Shown here piece after piece: positions 27,939 through 34,577 of a stretch of 34,577 nucleotides of DNA. Within the stretch, counting starts at the first letter, position 1; every line of letters starts with the position of its first letter. A model generated the notes under the pieces. The model saw only the letters and a list, made by a program, of their open reading frames with translations, was not told the origin of the DNA and ran no database searches. The translations under genes were made by a program, and so were the position numbers. The DNA is from Bryobacteraceae bacterium (lineage in GTDB: Bacteria > Acidobacteriota > Terriglobia > Bryobacterales > Bryobacteraceae), in NCBI GenBank assembly GCA_025056865.1, contig JANWVO010000033.1, forward strand, positions 1 through 34,577, read 5' to 3'.

Positions 27939-30900
27939 TCACACTTCCGCCGCCATCGCGCGCTCCGGCGCGGCCCTTTGGCCGATGAGGCGCTCCCGGT
28001 GCCTCCGCAGATAATAGTCGATGGTTTCCACCCGCAGGCGGATGGAGCCGGCGGGCCTGTTCTCGTCCAGGTCCTTGAATCCAAAGTAGGGGCGGCCGGC
28101 CGATTCGAGGATCCGCTGGATGAGCCTGTAGGCGGGCGCGTCGTGGCCGCAGCGGAAATTGGAGAGCTCGACGCCGATCAGGTTCGGGTGGCGGGCGACG
28201 AATTTCGCGGCCCAGACCTTGTGCGTGGTGCTGGCCGAATAGGAATGCTGCCAGACGTCGTCAATGTCGAGCGGGTGGTCGCCGCCGAAGACGCGCTCCA
28301 GGATATCGGGGGCGGTGGGCAGGAAGGATTGCGAAAGCACGGGGTAGCCGCGGGTCTGAAATTCTTCGGGGATGCCGTGGTTCAGGCCGGGATCATGGTG
28401 ATACGGCCGGCCGAGGATCACGATGCCGAGCCTGCGCTGCTGTTCAAGCATCTCGATGACGGCGCGGGTTTCGGCGCGCATCTGTTCCATCCACTGCCGG
28501 TGGGCCTCGTGCGCCACGGCGAGAGCGGCGGCGTTTTCCTCTTCGTCGACTCCAAGCACAGGCGCCCAGCATTCGAGCATCTGCCTTTCGAGCAGGCCGC
28601 GGTCGCGCAGGTCGAGCAGCGGACGGAGGAAGGCGATGCCGCGGCGGGCGAATTCGTCGCCGCCGATGCGGAAGGCGGCGTGGGCGACCAGCGGTGTGGT
28701 GCTGACCGTCGGGCAGGCGTTCGTGGCGATGCAGTTTTCCAGGTGCGTCTCCAGCACGTCGAACATGGGCATGAAAATCACCTGGAAGGGGCGGCGCGGG
28801 AAGTGCACGGCGAGCAGGTTGTGGATGTGGGCGACGGCTACCTTGGAGGGGAAGCAGGGGTCGATGGCGCCGCGGCCCATCGCGGCGCGGTACATGGCAT
28901 CGGAAGTGAAATCCGACCAGAGGATGTTTTCCGCGGGCACTCCGAGGCTTTCGAGGTAGGCCGCGAAGAAATTGGCGTAGATGTACTGATAGGTGACGCG
29001 CGGAATGGCGATGCGGATCTGGCTGCGCCGGGCGCGGAGGCGGGCGCGCGGCGTGAGGGCGAGCGGGGGGACGGGGCGGGCGACGAGCGGCGGCCGCTGC
29101 GCGGGGCGCCAGCAGGAGCGGGCAGCGAGCGCCACGAGGTTGGGGTTTTCGCGCCGGTTTCTCTCCGAAGCGGCGAGCACGCGGCGCACGCCCGCGGCAT
29201 CTTCGGCCGCGCCCTTTTCGCAGTTGGCGATGATGAGGCGGCCGCGTTCGCCGCAGAGCTCATAGTGAAGGAACGTGCGGATGCACGCGTTCTGACAGAA
29301 GCGGCAGCGGGTCTGTTCCCCGGATTCGGCGCGGAATTCGAGCGCCTCGATCGCTTCCAGACCGGGGAATTGCGTCGTCCTGCCGGAAGCCCAAAGATCG
29401 CGCGCTTCCAGAGCCGCGCCGATGGCGCCGGCCTCGCCGCAGAACGGGTGAACGGCGATTTCCACGCCGCCCGCGCGCCCGCGCGCGCATTCCCGGATGT
29501 AGTCCACCTGCGCCTTGACGGCGGCAAGGTTGTGCTGCGTGCCGCCCTGGAGGAGGAAGCGGCGGCCGAGCTGGAGCGGGTTCTGGATTTTCGCCACCTT
29601 GATCCAGATATTTCTGGGCAAGACGGCGGCCAGTCCGGCGAGAATTTCCTCCTGCGTCCAGCCCTGGCGCTGGAAATTGACGATGTCGGCCTGGAGGAAG
29701 ATGGCGCAGCCCGGGGTGAAGCGGGGCATGCGCCGGGCGCGGAAAGCGCGGCTGGCGTAGTCTTCCAGTGAAACGCCGAAGGAGCGGGCCACGGCCTGGA
29801 GGAAGTAGCCGTTGCCGGCCGAGCACTGCGTGTTGAGCATGAAATCGCGCACCTGCGGCCCGTGCAGCGTGATGATCTTGATGTCCTGCCCGCCGACGTC
29901 GACGATGACATCGACTCCGGGCATGACGGCAAGGCCCGAGCGGGCGTGCGCCGCCGTTTCGACCAGAGCTGCATCGGTGCGGAGCACGCGGGCGAGCACG
30001 TCTTTGGCGTAGCCGGTGACGGCGGCGCCGAGGACGTGGATCCGCGCGCCCTGCCGTTCTGCTTTTTCCCGCAATTCGCGCGCGATTTCCCGGCAATCAT
30101 GCAGCGGATTTCCGGCCGAGAGGCGGTAGGCCGAAGCGCGGACGGCGCCCCATTCGTCGATCAGCACGGCCTTGGTGGACGTGGAGCCTCCGTCGATTCC
30201 GAGAAAGACGCGGCACTTTTCGCCCCGTTCAAAGCCCCGCTCGGGACGGGAGGGCGGGCGGTACTGTTCGAGGAACTCCTGAAGTTCGCGGCGAGAGCGG
30301 CAGAGCCCCGGGAGCCCATCGGTCCTTGTGTCAGCCAGACACCCAGGGGCTGTCAGTGCGCCGGCGCCGCGGTATCCCGGCGCGCCTCCCTCCTCGCGCG
30401 CGAGCTCCACCGCGCCGAGAGCGGCGAAGTAAACCGCATCGTCGGGGCAGCGAACCAGCTCGGAGGCGGAGGCGCCCGCCGGAAGCTCGAGGCCGCGTTC
30501 CCGCCACAGGCGCATGAGATGGGCGCGCCAGGCCTCCCTGAGCCCGGGCAGATAGTAGTTGGGGCCGCCGAGCAGAAGCACGAGCGGGCGCAGGAGGCGG
30601 CCGCGGGACAGGACGGAAAGGTTTTGAAGCACGAGAGCCTCGAACAGCGAGGCGAACAGCTCGCGCTCCGGCACCCCCTTCTTCTGGAGGCTGTTGATGT
30701 CGCTTTCCGCGAAGACGCCGCACTTGCCCGCCACCGGGTGGACGGGCACGCCATCGTAGCGGTATCCGGCGAGCTGATCCTCGGGGATGCGGAGCTTGGC
30801 GGCGATCTTGTCGATGACGGCGCCGGTGCCGCCGGCGCAGACGTCGTTCATCGTCGATGTCTTCTTCCTGCCGCCGCCGGGCAGCGGTTCGAAGAAGATG

Positions 30901-31235
30901 ATCTTTGCATCCTGCCCGCCGAGCTCCACCACAGAGCCTGCTTCGGGAAAGAGTTTCTCGACGGCGTGCGCCACGGCGGCCACCTCGGAGACGCGGCGCG
31001 CGCCCACCGCGGGCGCGAACCCTGCCGCGCCCGAGCCCGTCATGACGACCTCGAGCCTGTGGCCGGGCGGACCGAATTCGTTATCGATGCGCCGGAGAAA
31101 ATCGGCCACGGTTTCCGCCTGGCGCGCGCCGTGGCGGCGGTAGTCGCGCCAGACGGGCGGACCGCCCGCCGCGGGGCAGACCACCGCTTTGACGGTAGTG
31201 GAACCGACGTCGATGCCGGCAATCCAGGTCAGCAT
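27939..31235 (-). CDS. Fused double activase (BcrAD/BadFG type) with COG3580-like C-terminal domain
   Basis: The protein has 1098 residues. Module 1 (about 5-280) and module 2 (about 343-610) are both ASKHA ATPases of the 2-hydroxyglutaryl-CoA dehydratase activase family. They contain AGIDVGSTTVKAVV and LGIDGGSTSTKAVLI, then VVELGGQDAKII and VIVDVGGQDIKII. Each keeps the two cysteines that hold a shared [4Fe-4S] cluster in HgdC: Cys133/Cys172 (DVCAGGTG, AGKCGVFAESD) and Cys471/Cys510 (TQCSAGNG, TPGCAIFLQAD). The C-terminal part (about 640-1090) is COG3580/DUF2229-like, with a C-x2-C-x3-C motif at 644/647/651, VILGRPYHHDPGLNHGI and SNFRCGHDAPAYRLIQ near the end. ATP hydrolysis probably drives low-potential electron transfer to a dehydratase- or reductase-like partner. 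Start ATG 31235 overlaps the upstream COG3581-like gene by 7 bp. The final substrate is unknown. Confidence 0.9.
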   Translation of the reverse strand: MLTWIAGIDVGSTTVKAVVCPAAGGPPVWRDYRRHGARQAETVADFLRRIDNEFGPPGHRLEVVMTGSGAAGFAPAVGARRVSEVAAVAHAVEKLFPEAGSVVELGGQDAKIIFFEPLPGGGRKKTSTMNDVCAGGTGAVIDKIAAKLRIPEDQLAGYRYDGVPVHPVAGKCGVFAESDINSLQKKGVPERELFASLFEALVLQNLSVLSRGRLLRPLVLLLGGPNYYLPGLREAWRAHLMRLWRERGLELPAGASASELVRCPDDAVYFAALGAVELAREEGGAPGYRGAGALTAPGCLADTRTDGLPGLCRSRRELQEFLEQYRPPSRPERGFERGEKCRVFLGIDGGSTSTKAVLIDEWGAVRASAYRLSAGNPLHDCREIARELREKAERQGARIHVLGAAVTGYAKDVLARVLRTDAALVETAAHARSGLAVMPGVDVIVDVGGQDIKIITLHGPQVRDFMLNTQCSAGNGYFLQAVARSFGVSLEDYASRAFRARRMPRFTPGCAIFLQADIVNFQRQGWTQEEILAGLAAVLPRNIWIKVAKIQNPLQLGRRFLLQGGTQHNLAAVKAQVDYIRECARGRAGGVEIAVHPFCGEAGAIGAALEARDLWASGRTTQFPGLEAIEALEFRAESGEQTRCRFCQNACIRTFLHYELCGERGRLIIANCEKGAAEDAAGVRRVLAASERNRRENPNLVALAARSCWRPAQRPPLVARPVPPLALTPRARLRARRSQIRIAIPRVTYQYIYANFFAAYLESLGVPAENILWSDFTSDAMYRAAMGRGAIDPCFPSKVAVAHIHNLLAVHFPRRPFQVIFMPMFDVLETHLENCIATNACPTVSTTPLVAHAAFRIGGDEFARRGIAFLRPLLDLRDRGLLERQMLECWAPVLGVDEEENAAALAVAHEAHRQWMEQMRAETRAVIEMLEQQRRLGIVILGRPYHHDPGLNHGIPEEFQTRGYPVLSQSFLPTAPDILERVFGGDHPLDIDDVWQHSYSASTTHKVWAAKFVARHPNLIGVELSNFRCGHDAPAYRLIQRILESAGRPYFGFKDLDENRPAGSIRLRVETIDYYLRRHRERLIGQRAAPERAMAAEV

Positions 31236-32860
31236 CCTTCCCGCCTCATCCGTTCCGCTGCGTGCAGGACAAAGCGCGCCGCCGCGCCCGCCGGCGGCGT
31301 TTCCGTTCCGAACCGGTAAAACGGGCTTTGCATTTCCGGGTGAGTTTCGACGAATTTCCGGATCTGTTCCAGCGTCCGTCCGGTGGTTTCCAATGCGGCG
31401 GCGAATTCCTGCCGGGCGCGGCGCCGCGCGTCGGCCAGCGCCATCTGCACCCGGTTCAGCGCATTGATTTCGCCCTCGCCCAGGGTTTCGAGCGGCAGGA
31501 AAACCAGCTCGGGATGCCGGGCCGACACCAGCGCCATGACGCCGTCGGCCTGCGTGGCAGGCATGCAGCCGAAGGGCTTCACGTTGATGAACAGGTGGCA
31601 GTCCTTCTCCTCGACCGCCTCCAGCGCCCGCCCGACGACGAGGTGGCCTTCGCCGCCGCGGGCCAGCGTGTCGTAGAGGGGATGAGCGAGCCTGCCGAGA
31701 CGCTCCTGGTCCTCCAGGCGGCCAGCGATGCCGCCCAGGCGGGCCGCGGATTCGTGATACTGACTGGCCCAGAACCAGGCCGAGAAGCGCAGCAGCGCTT
31801 CCTTTTTCCAGTAGCCGGGACGGAGCCCTTTCCTGCGGCGGTTGTTCAGGCGCGCCTCGTAAAGCCAGTATTGGACGAGGTTGGAGATGGGATCGACGCG
31901 GACCTCCGCGCCTTCCGATTCCAGATAGCGGAAGAGCCGGTAATTGGCGTCGCCCTCGGAGAGGGCGGAGTAGAATTCGCCGGTCACCTTCACGACGGGG
32001 CGGACGCGGAGCCAATCCACGCGGACGCGTTGCAGCCTGTGGCGGCACCATGCGAGCGCCTCTTTCCAGGCCGCGGAGCGGAGATGGAAACGGATCTTCT
32101 TCCAGACGTCCCACCACTTCAGCGCGCCGGGACGCAACGCGGCCTGCGCTTCGGGCCGCCGCGCCTGCTGGCGGAGGAAACGGGCGAGGAAGGCGACGCA
32201 GTCCGCGACGGCCTCGTCCGTGGCTCCTTCCTCGGCCTCGAAGGGGCGGATGCGGTGGCTGATGTCAAACAGCAGGTCGCCCAGAATGAGGGCGTTCAGC
32301 ATCCCGAGGCCGAAATCGACTGTGTATCTGAGACCAGGATGGCGAGAGCCCTCGCGGATGGCGGTGTTGGCGAGGAACGTGAGCACGCGGAACCCGGGGT
32401 AGCCCGCTTCTTCAAGAGCCTGACGGTACTCGGACTCGTACATGCCGAAACGGCAGGGCCCGCATCCGCCGATGGTGAAGTAGACGAAATCGCGGACGAT
32501 TTCCTGCGGGCTGCGGCCGTCTTTTTCGAGTGAGCGCAAGAAATCGATGAGATTTCCGGCGGTGTAATAGTTCGGGTTGCAAAGGCCGTGGTTGCAGTAC
32601 TCCACGCCGGTGGAGTAGCTGGAACGCGATGGCGTGGGGAGGGCGCGGCAGAGGTAACCGGAACCCTGGAAAACGGCCTCGATGAGGGCGTCGTGCTTTG
32701 GCGTCAGATTGCCGAAGAGGATGGTGGTGGAGGCGCGCTCTTCGGGCGTGAAAGGCAGCGCTTCCGGGCGGCGGTAATGGCGGCGCCGGGGTTCGGAAGA
32801 CAGTACAGGGAAGGCCGGCGGGAGTTCCGCTTCACGGGGCGGACCAGGAATCCGAGGCAT
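31229..32860 (-). CDS. COG3581-like partner of the activase (2-hydroxyacyl-CoA dehydratase-related)
   Basis: From ATG 32860, with AGGAGGTG 3 nt upstream, the protein has 543 residues; the longer open frame is unrelated sequence. It carries conserved cysteine motifs: EYCNHGLCNPN (Cys89/Cys94), GGCGPCRFGMYESEY (Cys133/Cys136) and, late in the chain, KPFGCMPA. These fit the COG3581 family, which in many anaerobes is encoded as the last part of one giant activase protein. Here it is a separate gene placed upstream and overlapping the activase gene by 7 bp, so 1:1 production is likely. The cysteines probably bind one or more Fe-S clusters that accept electrons from the activase. No signal peptide or membrane segment is present. 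The enzymatic reaction of this family has not, to my knowledge, been established. Confidence 0.85.
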   Translation of the reverse strand: MPRIPGPPREAELPPAFPVLSSEPRRRHYRRPEALPFTPEERASTTILFGNLTPKHDALIEAVFQGSGYLCRALPTPSRSSYSTGVEYCNHGLCNPNYYTAGNLIDFLRSLEKDGRSPQEIVRDFVYFTIGGCGPCRFGMYESEYRQALEEAGYPGFRVLTFLANTAIREGSRHPGLRYTVDFGLGMLNALILGDLLFDISHRIRPFEAEEGATDEAVADCVAFLARFLRQQARRPEAQAALRPGALKWWDVWKKIRFHLRSAAWKEALAWCRHRLQRVRVDWLRVRPVVKVTGEFYSALSEGDANYRLFRYLESEGAEVRVDPISNLVQYWLYEARLNNRRRKGLRPGYWKKEALLRFSAWFWASQYHESAARLGGIAGRLEDQERLGRLAHPLYDTLARGGEGHLVVGRALEAVEEKDCHLFINVKPFGCMPATQADGVMALVSARHPELVFLPLETLGEGEINALNRVQMALADARRRARQEFAAALETTGRTLEQIRKFVETHPEMQSPFYRFGTETPPAGAAARFVLHAAERMRREGC

Positions 32861-33099: not shown

Positions 33100-33852
33100 T
33101 CAGGAACAGGAGGTGGCGAGCATGGCAGCCTCCACGAGCGCTTCCCGCAGGCGCACCACGTGGCCCACGACGAGCACTGCGGGACTGGCAACGTCCACAC
33201 CGCCGGCGGCAAGCGTCTCTAGATCGGTGACGAGGATGCGCTCTTCCGGCAGCGTGCCATTTTCGATGAAAGCAGCGGGCTCCTGCGGGTCCCTGCCAGC
33301 GCGGATCAGGGAAGCGGCGATTTCGGCGCGGCGCGCAACACCCATGAGGATGATCAGCGTGTCGACGCGCGCGAGGGCCGCCCAATCGACGCCGTCGCCG
33401 CCGCAGGCGTGGCCGGCGACGACGGCGAAGCTGCGGGCAAGGCCGCGGAACGTCGGCGGGATTCCGGCCAGCGAGGGAACCGACAGGGCGGACGTCACGC
33501 CGGGGACGAGCTCCACGTCCCAACCGCGCCCGCGCAGCCAGCGCCATTCCTCCGCTCCGCGGCCGAAGACCATCGGGTCGCCGCCCTTCAGGCGGACGAC
33601 GTGCCGGAAATGCCGTGCGTATTCCTCCAGTTCGAGCAGAATCCGCTGCTGCATTTCTTCCTGCCGGCCGTGTTCTTTTCCCGCATCCACGAGCAGAGCG
33701 CCGGGCCGGACCATGGCGAGCACTTCGGACGACACCAGGCGGTCGTAAAGCACGACCTCGGCCAGCGCGAGCACCTCGGCAGCCCGCAGCGTGAGCAGGT
33801 CTCTGCGTCCGGGGCCGGCGCCGACGAGATAGATCCGGGACGTCGGCTTCAT
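33100..33852 (-). CDS. cobA: Uroporphyrinogen-III C-methyltransferase
   Basis: This 250-residue SAM-dependent enzyme methylates uroporphyrinogen III at C2 and C7 to make precorrin-2, the branch point to sirohaem and cobalamin. Family motifs are intact: YLVGAGPGRRDLLTLRA (8-24), YDRLVS, VRLKGGDPMVFGRGAEE (86-102) and VPGVTSALSVPSLAGIP. It is the stand-alone methyltransferase form; the CysG-type dehydrogenase/ferrochelatase domain is absent. ATG 33852 overlaps the stop of the TauE-like gene (ATGA, 33849-33852). Being coupled to a TauE/SafE transporter, it more likely serves sirohaem for sulfite or nitrite reductase than cobalamin, but no such reductase is in view. The open frame further upstream is the shadow of the transporter gene. 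Confidence 0.95.
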   Translation of the reverse strand: MKPTSRIYLVGAGPGRRDLLTLRAAEVLALAEVVLYDRLVSSEVLAMVRPGALLVDAGKEHGRQEEMQQRILLELEEYARHFRHVVRLKGGDPMVFGRGAEEWRWLRGRGWDVELVPGVTSALSVPSLAGIPPTFRGLARSFAVVAGHACGGDGVDWAALARVDTLIILMGVARRAEIAASLIRAGRDPQEPAAFIENGTLPEERILVTDLETLAAGGVDVASPAVLVVGHVVRLREALVEAAMLATSCS

Positions 33853-34577
33853 CGGGCAAAGCTCCTGAGGCCATCCCACATCAGATGGGAGCCCAGATAG
33901 ATCAGCAGGAGGGTGAGCGCGGTGCGGAACGGCCTGGCCGGGAGGAACGAGGCGAGCCAGGCTCCGCAAAGGGCCCCGGGGATGCCGCCCAGGCACAGCC
34001 GCCGGAAGGCTTCGTAGTCGACGTTGCCTGAGGCCAGATGGAGAGAGCCTGCGGCGGCGGCCAGAACGAGGCCGAACAGCAGATCGGTGCCGACGATCCG
34101 TGCCGGGGCCAGAGTCGTGCATTGCATCAATGCGAGGTTGCCGAGAGCGCCAGCACCCGCCGAGGAAAAGCCCACTTCCAGTCCGATGGGAGCGCCCACG
34201 ACCGCCAGCCATGTGCGGCGGCGTTTGCCCCCTTCGGCGAGTCTCCGGCGGAGGGTGCGGCAAAGGTTGATGAACGCCATCGAGACGATCGTCATTCCGA
34301 CGACGACGAGCACCGCAGGGCGCAGTTGCGTTTCCCGGAACAGGTTGTGCACGCGCACTCCCGCGAATGCGCCGGGCAGCCCGCCGGCCAGCAGGAGCGC
34401 CGCGGCGCGCCAGTCGACTTCGCCGCGCAACATGTAGACGGGCGCCGCGAGGAGCTTGACCACTGTGACGAACAGCAACGCCGTGCCGACGGCAGCGGCG
34501 GGTTCCATGCCAAAGCCGAGGATCAGAATGGGCGTCATCAGGACGCCGCCGCCGACGCCGGTGAGTCCGACGGCGAG
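33849..34577 (-). CDS. TauE/SafE family transporter, 5-prime part beyond the window
   Basis: About 242 C-terminal residues of a multi-pass membrane protein are visible; the frame is open through the window edge, so the true start lies outside. Several hydrophobic segments (AAVGTALLFVTVVKLLAAPV, AAALLLAGGLPGAFAGV, ALTLLLIYLGSHL) and the glycine-rich stretch LTGVGGGVLMTP near the edge fit the TauE/SafE (DUF81) family, which exports sulfite, sulfoacetate or related anions. The internal duplication typical of the family is visible as the repeated GG(L/I)PGA(F/L) motif. Its stop overlaps the cobA start by 4 bp, which supports a sulfur-related role. ATG 34538 is probably internal rather than the start. 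Confidence 0.9.
   Translation of the reverse strand, partial: LAVGLTGVGGGVLMTPILILGFGMEPAAAVGTALLFVTVVKLLAAPVYMLRGEVDWRAAALLLAGGLPGAFAGVRVHNLFRETQLRPAVLVVVGMTIVSMAFINLCRTLRRRLAEGGKRRRTWLAVVGAPIGLEVGFSSAGAGALGNLALMQCTTLAPARIVGTDLLFGLVLAAAAGSLHLASGNVDYEAFRRLCLGGIPGALCGAWLASFLPARPFRTALTLLLIYLGSHLMWDGLRSFAR

What the first reader, a model, noticed from the sequence alone, without database searches (positions are those of the whole stretch)
27939..32860. Two-gene activase system with both ATPase modules fused into a possible internal pseudo-dimer
HgdC-type activases work as homodimers with one [4Fe-4S] cluster held by two cysteines from each subunit. Here two activase modules sit in one chain and both retain the cysteine pair (133/172 and 471/510), so a single polypeptide could hold the cluster. 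A COG3580-like cysteine-rich domain is fused behind, and a separate COG3581-like protein is co-translated through a 7-bp overlap. No recognisable hydroxyacyl-CoA dehydratase, benzoyl-CoA reductase or CoA-transferase gene is adjacent. This points to an ATP-driven low-potential electron donor with an unknown target.
Basis: partly seen in the sequence, partly recalled or inferred. Interest (0 to 1): 0.72.

Follow-up and report, generated by a model that had tools for sequence, protein, structure and literature searches.

The report
Self-contained ATP-driven iron-sulfur reductase pair
Two overlapping bacterial genes appear to encode an ATP-powered iron-sulfur electron pump together with the enzyme halves that it feeds, and this kind of machine, usually thought of as anaerobic, sits here in a bacterium that carries genes for breathing oxygen; its substrate is unknown.

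Summary
In detail: 543-aa and 1098-aa proteins overlap by 7 bp, and the longer carries two HgdC-type activase modules that both keep the cluster-cysteine pair (133/172, 471/510; 51 of 51 aligned rows, window included). An internal activase pseudo-dimer is well supported by alignment, but cysteine distances were not measured. The "unknown target" is probably built in: the 543-aa protein's predicted fold has 2-hydroxyacyl-CoA dehydratase, benzoyl-CoA reductase and double-cubane proteins as its 16 best PDB matches, and profile comparison links it to the C-terminal part of the 1098-aa protein and both to PF06050, above all permuted controls. Each half keeps three cysteines across the wider family. 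The pair looks like a complete BcrABCD-like machine: two ATPase modules plus two acceptor halves.

It is not unique. The genes are linked in 67 of 72 loci found, and single-gene four-module versions occur in Collinsella, Haliovirga and Listeria, annotated as activase or dehydratase. The setting is odd: 96 of 101 same-class genomes with the 543-aa family carry a heme-copper oxidase (291 of 299 in the class do) and 0 of 299 the anaerobic ribonucleotide reductase. Substrate unknown.

The parts
31229..32860 (-).
27939..31235 (-). 1098-aa protein P0001: activase module 1 - activase module 2 - four-cysteine linker - COG3580-like acceptor half
30336..31235 (-). Activase (ASKHA) module 1, residues 1-300, cluster cysteines 133 and 172
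29361..30230 (-). Activase (ASKHA) module 2, residues 336-625, cluster cysteines 471 and 510
29136..29360 (-). Linker domain, residues 626-700, C-x2-C-x3-C ... C-x2-G (644/647/651/672), invariant in 51 of 51 rows; metal site type unknown
27942..29030 (-). COG3580-like acceptor half, residues 736-1098 (contains DUF2229 match 741-970); three family-wide cysteines 794, 841, 1029
31229..31235 (-). 7-bp overlap of the two genes (translational coupling inferred)
   Evidence: same overlap in L036 and L035
32864..32871 (-). AGGAGGTG, Shine-Dalgarno-like, before the 543-aa start codon
   Evidence: sequence

Best explanation
The two genes encode one self-contained ATP-driven reductase of the activase/dehydratase type. 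Shown by sequence: two activase modules in one chain, both matching the activase family and both with the cluster cysteine pair; a four-cysteine linker; and two halves (C-terminal half of the long protein, and the 543-aa partner) with remote similarity to HGD-D-type enzymes and three family-wide invariant cysteines each. Inferred: the two activase modules pair as an internal pseudo-dimer holding one [4Fe-4S] cluster. The two HGD-D-like halves pair as a heterodimer, each with a [4Fe-4S] cluster on three cysteines with one open iron. A ferredoxin- or flavodoxin-type donor reduces the activase cluster (perhaps through the linker), ATP hydrolysis drops its potential, and single electrons are pushed into the partner heterodimer, which reduces an unknown substrate. 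It thus resembles BcrA+BcrD driving BcrB+BcrC, rearranged as (A-D-linker-B) + C.
For: Activase modules: Foldseek ranks 1-10 of the 1098-aa model are all MbdQ/P, HadI, HgdC and DCCP reductase (50 of 1463 rows listed); both modules align to solved activases with the cluster cysteines in register; four cysteines in 51 of 51 rows. Acceptor half 1 (543 aa): AF2 model pLDDT 85.7, pTM 0.87; Foldseek ranks 1-16 are all DCCP, MbdON/MbdONPQ, HadBC or BzdNO chains (E 5.6e-5 to 0.12, six of them below 0.001), and rank 17 is unrelated at E 0.25. Acceptor half 2: hhalign COG3580 against COG3581 gives E 1.2e-5, prob 81%, 206 columns, score 49.9 against at most 26.6 in 150 column permutations and 17.5 reversed. 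Against PF06050 proteins: COG3580 30.8 and COG3581 37.5, against at most 26.8 and 27.0 in 150 permutations each, 21.1 and 20.9 reversed, and at most 21.6 and 22.1 over 30 ORF families from the neighbourhoods. Cysteines 794, 841, 1029 in 85 of 85 rows; 136 and 432 in 85 of 85; 94 in 84 plus one gap. The order 94/136/432 resembles BzdO Cys95/128/380, which bind one [4Fe-4S] (PMC11971306, passages; strand-helix linkers, section 7). Single-gene fusions of all four modules in three records looked at: Collinsella, Haliovirga, Listeria. Genes linked in 67 of 72 loci. No other HgdC-type activase and no PF06050 gene found in the own genome.
Against: The COG3580 half could not be fold-searched alone; its PF06050 alignment (145 columns, C-terminal domain on C-terminal domain) has single-pair prob 7.6% and E 0.0046. 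In the COG3580-COG3581 alignment Cys 841 and 136 are one column apart. With narrower alignments none of the three comparisons was convincing (E 0.012, 0.089, 0.29). Activase module 1 as a control scored 24.6 against COG3580. Neither Pfam nor a PDB sequence search finds a relative of the 543-aa protein. No substrate, electron donor or biochemistry. The host class is rich in oxidases, whereas characterised relatives are anaerobic enzymes.
Confidence: 0.7

Rival explanations
1. One reading: a stand-alone low-potential electron donor; the COG3580/COG3581 parts are docking or relay domains, and the real target is another, unlinked enzyme.
For: No conserved neighbour beyond the pair in most loci; no CoA-pathway gene among the window ORFs scanned; substrate unknown.
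Against: The COG3580/COG3581 parts resemble the reductase/dehydratase component itself, with three invariant cysteines each, and are fused to or linked with the activase in nearly all cases seen.
Confidence: 0.15
2. A reductive activator that re-reduces a metal cofactor of another protein (corrinoid, nickel or other), the HGD-D-like halves acting as cluster relay, in the manner of RACo-like or MCR-activation systems (recalled; MCR activation seen as passages of PMC12176620).
For: Stand-alone loci without a pathway; a radical SAM/SPASM gene between the two genes in 8, and near them in 3 more, of 58 longer loci.
Against: No consistent cofactor gene beside it; the uroporphyrinogen methyltransferase upstream in the window is shared only with L036 among the stretches held for 72 loci; the radical SAM gene has no close copy in the own genome (best 28% identity over part).
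Confidence: 0.1
3. An ordinary 2-hydroxyacyl-CoA dehydratase or benzoyl-CoA reductase system with a known substrate, merely mis-annotated.
For: Records call the fused homologues 'acyl-CoA dehydratase activase' and '2-hydroxyacyl-CoA dehydratase'; same overall parts list.
Against: Below the equivalog cut-offs of the benzoyl-CoA reductase models matched; 0 PF06050 matches in the own genome; no acyl-CoA or aromatic pathway gene among 18 other window ORFs scanned; the halves are too distant for Pfam or PDB sequence search.
Confidence: 0.04

Closest known systems
Class I benzoyl-CoA reductases (BcrABCD, BzdNOPQ, MbdONPQ)
   Same: Two different activase units plus two different HGD-D-fold units; solved MbdQ/P are among the best matches of the activase modules and MbdON/BzdNO among those of the 543-aa model.
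   Different: Both activase units and one acceptor unit are in one chain with an extra four-cysteine linker; acceptor halves are recognisable only by fold and profile; three conserved cysteines in each half, not the six named for BzdN (PMC11971306); no aromatic pathway seen in the window.
2-Hydroxyacyl-CoA dehydratases with activator (HgdC/HgdAB, HadI/HadBC)
   Same: Activase cluster cysteines in register; HadBC among the fold matches.
   Different: The activator there is a homodimer of one module (recalled, and the finding); here a tandem; no CoA-transferase or acyl-CoA genes among the ORFs scanned; acceptor halves too distant for PF06050.
Double-cubane cluster protein and its reductase (DCCP/DCCP-R; 6eno, 7yyl)
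   Same: Best fold match of the 543-aa model; DCCP-R is the best PDB sequence match of activase module 1.
   Different: Only three family-wide cysteines in each half, against six for the [8Fe-9S] cluster of BzdN in PMC11971306; DCCP-R is a single module of 243 residues.
Uncharacterised fused four-module proteins ('acyl-CoA dehydratase activase' or '2-hydroxyacyl-CoA dehydratase', 1449-1479 aa; COG1924-COG1924-COG3580-COG3581 labels recalled)
   Same: Same four modules and linker cysteines, same six acceptor cysteines.
   Different: One gene there, two overlapping genes here with the COG3581 gene first.

Membership tests
HgdC-type activase (PF01869/TIGR00241) | Family profile over its cut-off | tested here: met
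HgdC-type activase (PF01869/TIGR00241) | Two cluster cysteines per module in register with solved activases | tested here: met
   51 of 51 rows
HgdC-type activase (PF01869/TIGR00241) | Two modules face each other around one [4Fe-4S] cluster | tested here: inconclusive
2-hydroxyacyl-CoA dehydratase / benzoyl-CoA reductase component (PF06050 HGD-D) | PF06050 profile over its cut-off | tested here: not met
   no match. Hence not filed as a member, only as a remote relative
2-hydroxyacyl-CoA dehydratase / benzoyl-CoA reductase component (PF06050 HGD-D) | HGD-D fold, 543-aa protein | tested here: met
   Foldseek ranks 1-16, best E 5.6e-5, TM by target 0.33-0.48
2-hydroxyacyl-CoA dehydratase / benzoyl-CoA reductase component (PF06050 HGD-D) | HGD-D fold, C-terminal half of the 1098-aa protein | tested here: inconclusive
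   Profile comparison only; not fold-searched alone
2-hydroxyacyl-CoA dehydratase / benzoyl-CoA reductase component (PF06050 HGD-D) | Three cysteines in strand-helix linkers binding a [4Fe-4S] cluster | tested here: inconclusive
   Three invariant cysteines in each half at matching places in the order of strands and helices; cluster not shown
2-hydroxyacyl-CoA dehydratase / benzoyl-CoA reductase component (PF06050 HGD-D) | Acyl-CoA substrate | not testable with these tools
   needs biochemistry
Double-cubane cluster protein | Six cysteines per half for [8Fe-9S] | tested here: not met
   Of the window's cysteines tested (5 of 5 in the COG3580 half, 9 of 10 in the 543-aa protein) three per half are family-wide
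Class I benzoyl-CoA reductase | NCBIfam equivalog cut-offs TIGR02259/02261/03192 | tested here: not met
   109.6, 79.9 and 89 bits against cut-offs 578, 312.85 and 380.2

The most novel reading that the evidence does not exclude
A widespread, uncharacterised enzyme class in which a tandem activase and a remote HGD-D-type heterodimer form one permanent complex that does ATP-driven, radical-type reductions of a new substrate in oxygen-respiring bacteria, with built-in cluster relay (four-cysteine linker) and possibly oxygen protection gained by never separating donor from acceptor.
Probability: 0.33. Interest if true: 0.78.

Novelty: new variant of a known kind. Interest (0 to 1): 0.55.

Why it matters
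Enzymes of this type reach very low potentials by spending ATP and are known from anaerobic fermentation (recalled) and anoxic aromatic degradation (PMC11971306, abstract passage). If this pair is a complete reductase rather than an orphan activator, a large group of proteins now annotated as 'activase' or 'dehydratase' is a whole enzyme with an unknown substrate, and the search for a missing target can stop. Its presence in 101 of 299 genomes of a class where 291 of 299 carry a heme-copper oxidase gene raises a testable question: what low-potential reduction do such bacteria need, and how is it kept from oxygen? Naming the acceptor halves gives a direct expression and assay target.

Tried and rejected
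Radical SAM/SPASM partner: among 58 loci of more than 9 kb, a related radical SAM gene lies between the two genes in 8 and upstream or downstream of them in 3 (L046, with a 1.5-kb gap between its genes, was too short to be among the 58). Its best NCBIfam matches are all far below cut-off (best 25 of 47 and of 52 shown); no close copy in the own genome. Rejected as a required part. The cluster also held L071, visibly a different radical SAM protein; I left it out.

Link to siroheme or sulfur metabolism through the upstream uroporphyrinogen methyltransferase and transporter-like gene: seen only in L036 among the stretches held for 72 loci, several of which are short; rejected as functional evidence.

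Molybdopterin-enzyme-type Fe4S4 domain for the linker: the motif looks like it from memory, but hmmscan of 51 linker slices gave only scattered weak hits (11 families, best E 0.0077; one slice to an Nqo3 ferredoxin-like domain at E 0.024; zinc-finger families as well; none to that domain). Undecided between a Fe-S and a zinc site.

Conserved neighbour search: my gene calls were crude (longest non-overlapping ORFs, high G+C, antisense shadow ORFs included). Apart from the pair and the radical SAM gene, families recurred in at most 5 of 58 loci. Some of the 30 'neighbour families' used as decoys are such shadow ORFs.

Promoter and terminator scan: nothing above chance (0 promoters; 4 terminators against 3.9 in shuffles).

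Literature: ten searches with DUF2229, PF09989, COG3580, COG3581, COG1924, activase names, archerase and double-cubane showed no title or abstract on the function of the four-module family. This holds only for that open library and those terms. Papers that merely contain such a term (for example PMC11362221, PMC11417686, PMC7306483) were seen as listings and not opened. The DCCP complex paper (PMC9351452) is not held. Of PMC5322559, PMC5495212, PMC6952196, PMC4972977 and PMC12176620 I saw passages only; none of those passages describes a function of this family. Of PMC11971306 I saw passages and section 7.

Second PF01869 hit in the own genome (C1:51686): sugar-kinase-like, without the activase cysteine motif. 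The third (C3:116482) is below the cut-off and its ORF reads like a sugar kinase (recalled).

Caveats to counts: (98 of 98 for each activase cysteine) a truncated divergent ORF may contribute its module 2 as the best module-1 match, and window copies L001, L003 and L024 may be counted; the clean number is 51 of 51. In some searches a few rows may be window copies. In one search the last cysteine of the 543-aa protein (543) was not tested. A1 left out loci whose activase is cut by a contig end or split (50 of 72 loci used); A2 used 69 of 72.
Full report
What is there. On the minus strand two genes overlap by 7 bp (31229-31235): a 543-aa protein (32860 to 31229) followed by a 1098-aa protein (31235 to 27939). 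Pfam sees two BcrAD_BadFG ATPase stretches and DUF2229 in the long protein and nothing in the 543-aa protein.

Activase part. Taken separately, residues 1-300 and 336-625 each match solved activases: DCCP reductase 7yyl, HadI 4eht, HgdC 1hux, MbdQ/P 9gai. Module 1 scores best with DCCP reductase (E 2.2e-17), module 2 best with HgdC (E 7.4e-24). In the printed alignments (three per module) Cys 133 and 471 fall on the first, and Cys 172 and 510 on the second, of the two conserved cysteines of those activases. All four are invariant in 51 of 51 rows, the window and 50 homologues from the genome-contig loci. The AlphaFold2 model, built on those 51 rows, has pLDDT 87.2 and pTM 0.82, and its ten best PDB matches are all activases. 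I could not obtain coordinates, so the convergence of the four cysteines is inferred from homology, not measured. The class I benzoyl-CoA reductase complex 9gai already has two different activase chains, so a fused non-identical pair is a modest step.

The missing target. The AF2 model of the 543-aa protein (70 rows, pLDDT 85.7, pTM 0.87) was compared with the PDB. Ranks 1-16 are all chains of the dehydratase / benzoyl-CoA reductase / double-cubane group (6eno, 7yyl, 7yzm, 9g87, 3o3m, 8s02, 8s2r, 9gai, 3o3o); E runs from 5.6e-5 to 0.12, six are below 0.001, and rank 17 is a lactate dehydrogenase at E 0.25 (50 of 292 rows listed). TM-scores are modest (0.33-0.48 by target), rmsd about 10-12 A; I take this as different domain hinging, which is an inference. 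COG3580 against COG3581 gives E 1.2e-5, prob 81%, over 206 columns, with Cys 794 on Cys 94 and Cys 841 one column from Cys 136. COG3580 against PF06050 (145 columns) scores 30.8, prob 7.6%, and lays the C-terminal domain on the C-terminal domain, with Cys 1029 on a PF06050 cysteine. COG3581 against PF06050 (83 columns) scores 37.5, prob 22.5%, but lays its N-terminal domain on the C-terminal domain of PF06050, so it speaks for similar alpha/beta halves rather than for full-length homology. None of 150 column permutations of the partner reached the real score in any of the three comparisons (best 26.8, 27.0 and 26.6); reversed alignments scored 17.5-21.1; 30 ORF families from the neighbourhoods (some of them antisense shadow ORFs) scored at most 22.1. 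The nearest control was activase module 1 against COG3580 at 24.6. An earlier run with narrower alignments gave nothing convincing (E 0.012, 0.089, 0.29).

Cysteine anatomy. Over 85 aligned rows each, which include divergent paralogues and the three fused proteins, three of the five cysteines of the COG3580 half are kept (794, 841, 1029: 85 of 85 each), and three of nine tested in the 543-aa protein (136 and 432: 85 of 85; 94: 84 plus one gap). The others vary, including 133 of the 543-aa protein (71 of 85). In both models the six sit just before a helix or between a strand and the next helix, in the same order. In BzdO the [4Fe-4S] cluster is bound by Cys95, Cys128 and Cys380, and three strand-helix linkers form the cluster sites (PMC11971306, passages and section 7). 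BzdN, with the [8Fe-9S] double cubane, uses six cysteines (same paper). The three-cysteine pattern therefore argues for single [4Fe-4S] clusters with an open iron and against a double cubane. A further four-cysteine linker (644, 647, 651, 672) is invariant in 51 of 51 rows but matches no Pfam family convincingly.

Not unique, and linked. In 72 loci fetched with the 543-aa protein, both genes lie together on one strand in 67: 60 with the short gene first (34 of them within 60 bp, 16 within 61-400 bp, 10 farther apart), 7 with the activase first. In 5 the activase was not found in the stretch held; L070, L096 and L102 end inside or within 300 bp of the short gene, whereas L097 and L098 have room and show none. 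Single-chain four-module proteins occur in Collinsella (1479 aa), Haliovirga (1449 aa) and Listeria (1475 aa); the records call them 'acyl-CoA dehydratase activase' or '2-hydroxyacyl-CoA dehydratase'. The order there is activase - activase - COG3580 - COG3581. The window therefore holds a two-gene version of a widespread, uncharacterised family.

Context. The own genome (4.18 Mb, reported 100% complete) has one HgdC-type activase that I could find, the one here, and no PF06050 gene. It has three COX1-type oxidase genes. In 299 genomes of its class, the 543-aa family is found in 101 (13 of these have only a best E worse than 1e-50, that is a divergent paralogue or a fragment), PF06050 in 39, COX1 in 291 and anaerobic ribonucleotide reductase in 0. 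Comparing the lists by hand, 26 genomes have both the 543-aa family and PF06050, so 75 of 101 have the former without a PF06050 gene, and 96 of 101 have COX1; that is no enrichment over the class (291 of 299), only the class's habit. Absence of NRDD does not prove an aerobic life, since other ribonucleotide reductases can serve without oxygen (recalled), and none of this shows when the genes are expressed. In the DUF2229 search four of 14 control genomes ring: Thermus composti, Deinobacterium chartae, Thermotoga maritima and Lactococcus lactis. Four of the five genomes of the same genus that were searched, the own one included, have the family; G004 lacks it.

How it most likely works. Shown: module composition, cluster cysteines, remote similarity of the two halves to HGD-D-type enzymes, physical linkage and fusion. 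Inferred: internal activase pseudo-dimer, heterodimeric acceptor, electron flow from donor to activase to acceptor with ATP hydrolysis as the gate, and a radical-type reduction. Unknown: the substrate, the donor, and the role of the linker. A radical SAM/SPASM gene is between the genes in 8 and near them in 3 of the 58 longer loci, but has no close copy in the own genome.

Verdict. Observation confirmed; the activase pseudo-dimer reading is well supported but unmeasured; the 'unknown target' reading should be replaced by a built-in acceptor. [quoted passage not shown] it is not filed as a member, because the PF06050 and equivalog tests are not met.

Noticed in passing
L035 1778-3118, L037 5595-6938, L040 9328-10380, L045, L047, L048, L050, L052, L055, L058, L059: A radical SAM/SPASM-like protein next to or between the two genes in many Acidobacteriota bins; closest NCBIfam models are heme b synthase and PapB-type maturases, all far below cut-off.
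   Followed up: partly
L005-L011, L013, L029 and L069 3079-7529: A second, divergent paralogous family of the same architecture (about 1030-1080-aa activase-COG3580 protein plus a COG3581-like ORF) in many relatives, in L069 within 1 kb of the first.
   Followed up: partly
L035 (DYJN01000093.1): Record titled Arcobacter sp., but its two genes are 72-73% identical to the window's, like those of Bryobacteraceae L036; the title probably reflects a mis-binned or mislabelled metagenome contig.
   Followed up: no
window 33100-34538 and L036 1963-3368: A transporter-like (TSUP-like, recalled) gene and uroporphyrinogen-III C-methyltransferase lie upstream on the same strand; this order is kept only in L036 among the stretches held for 72 loci.
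   Followed up: yes
L062 6738-10303: The activase gene falls in two overlapping frames, a frameshift or an assembly error; described only, left out of the alignment.
   Followed up: no
class-level searches: None of 299 genomes of this class has a match to anaerobic ribonucleotide reductase (NRDD), while 291 of 299 have a heme-copper oxidase match.
   Followed up: no
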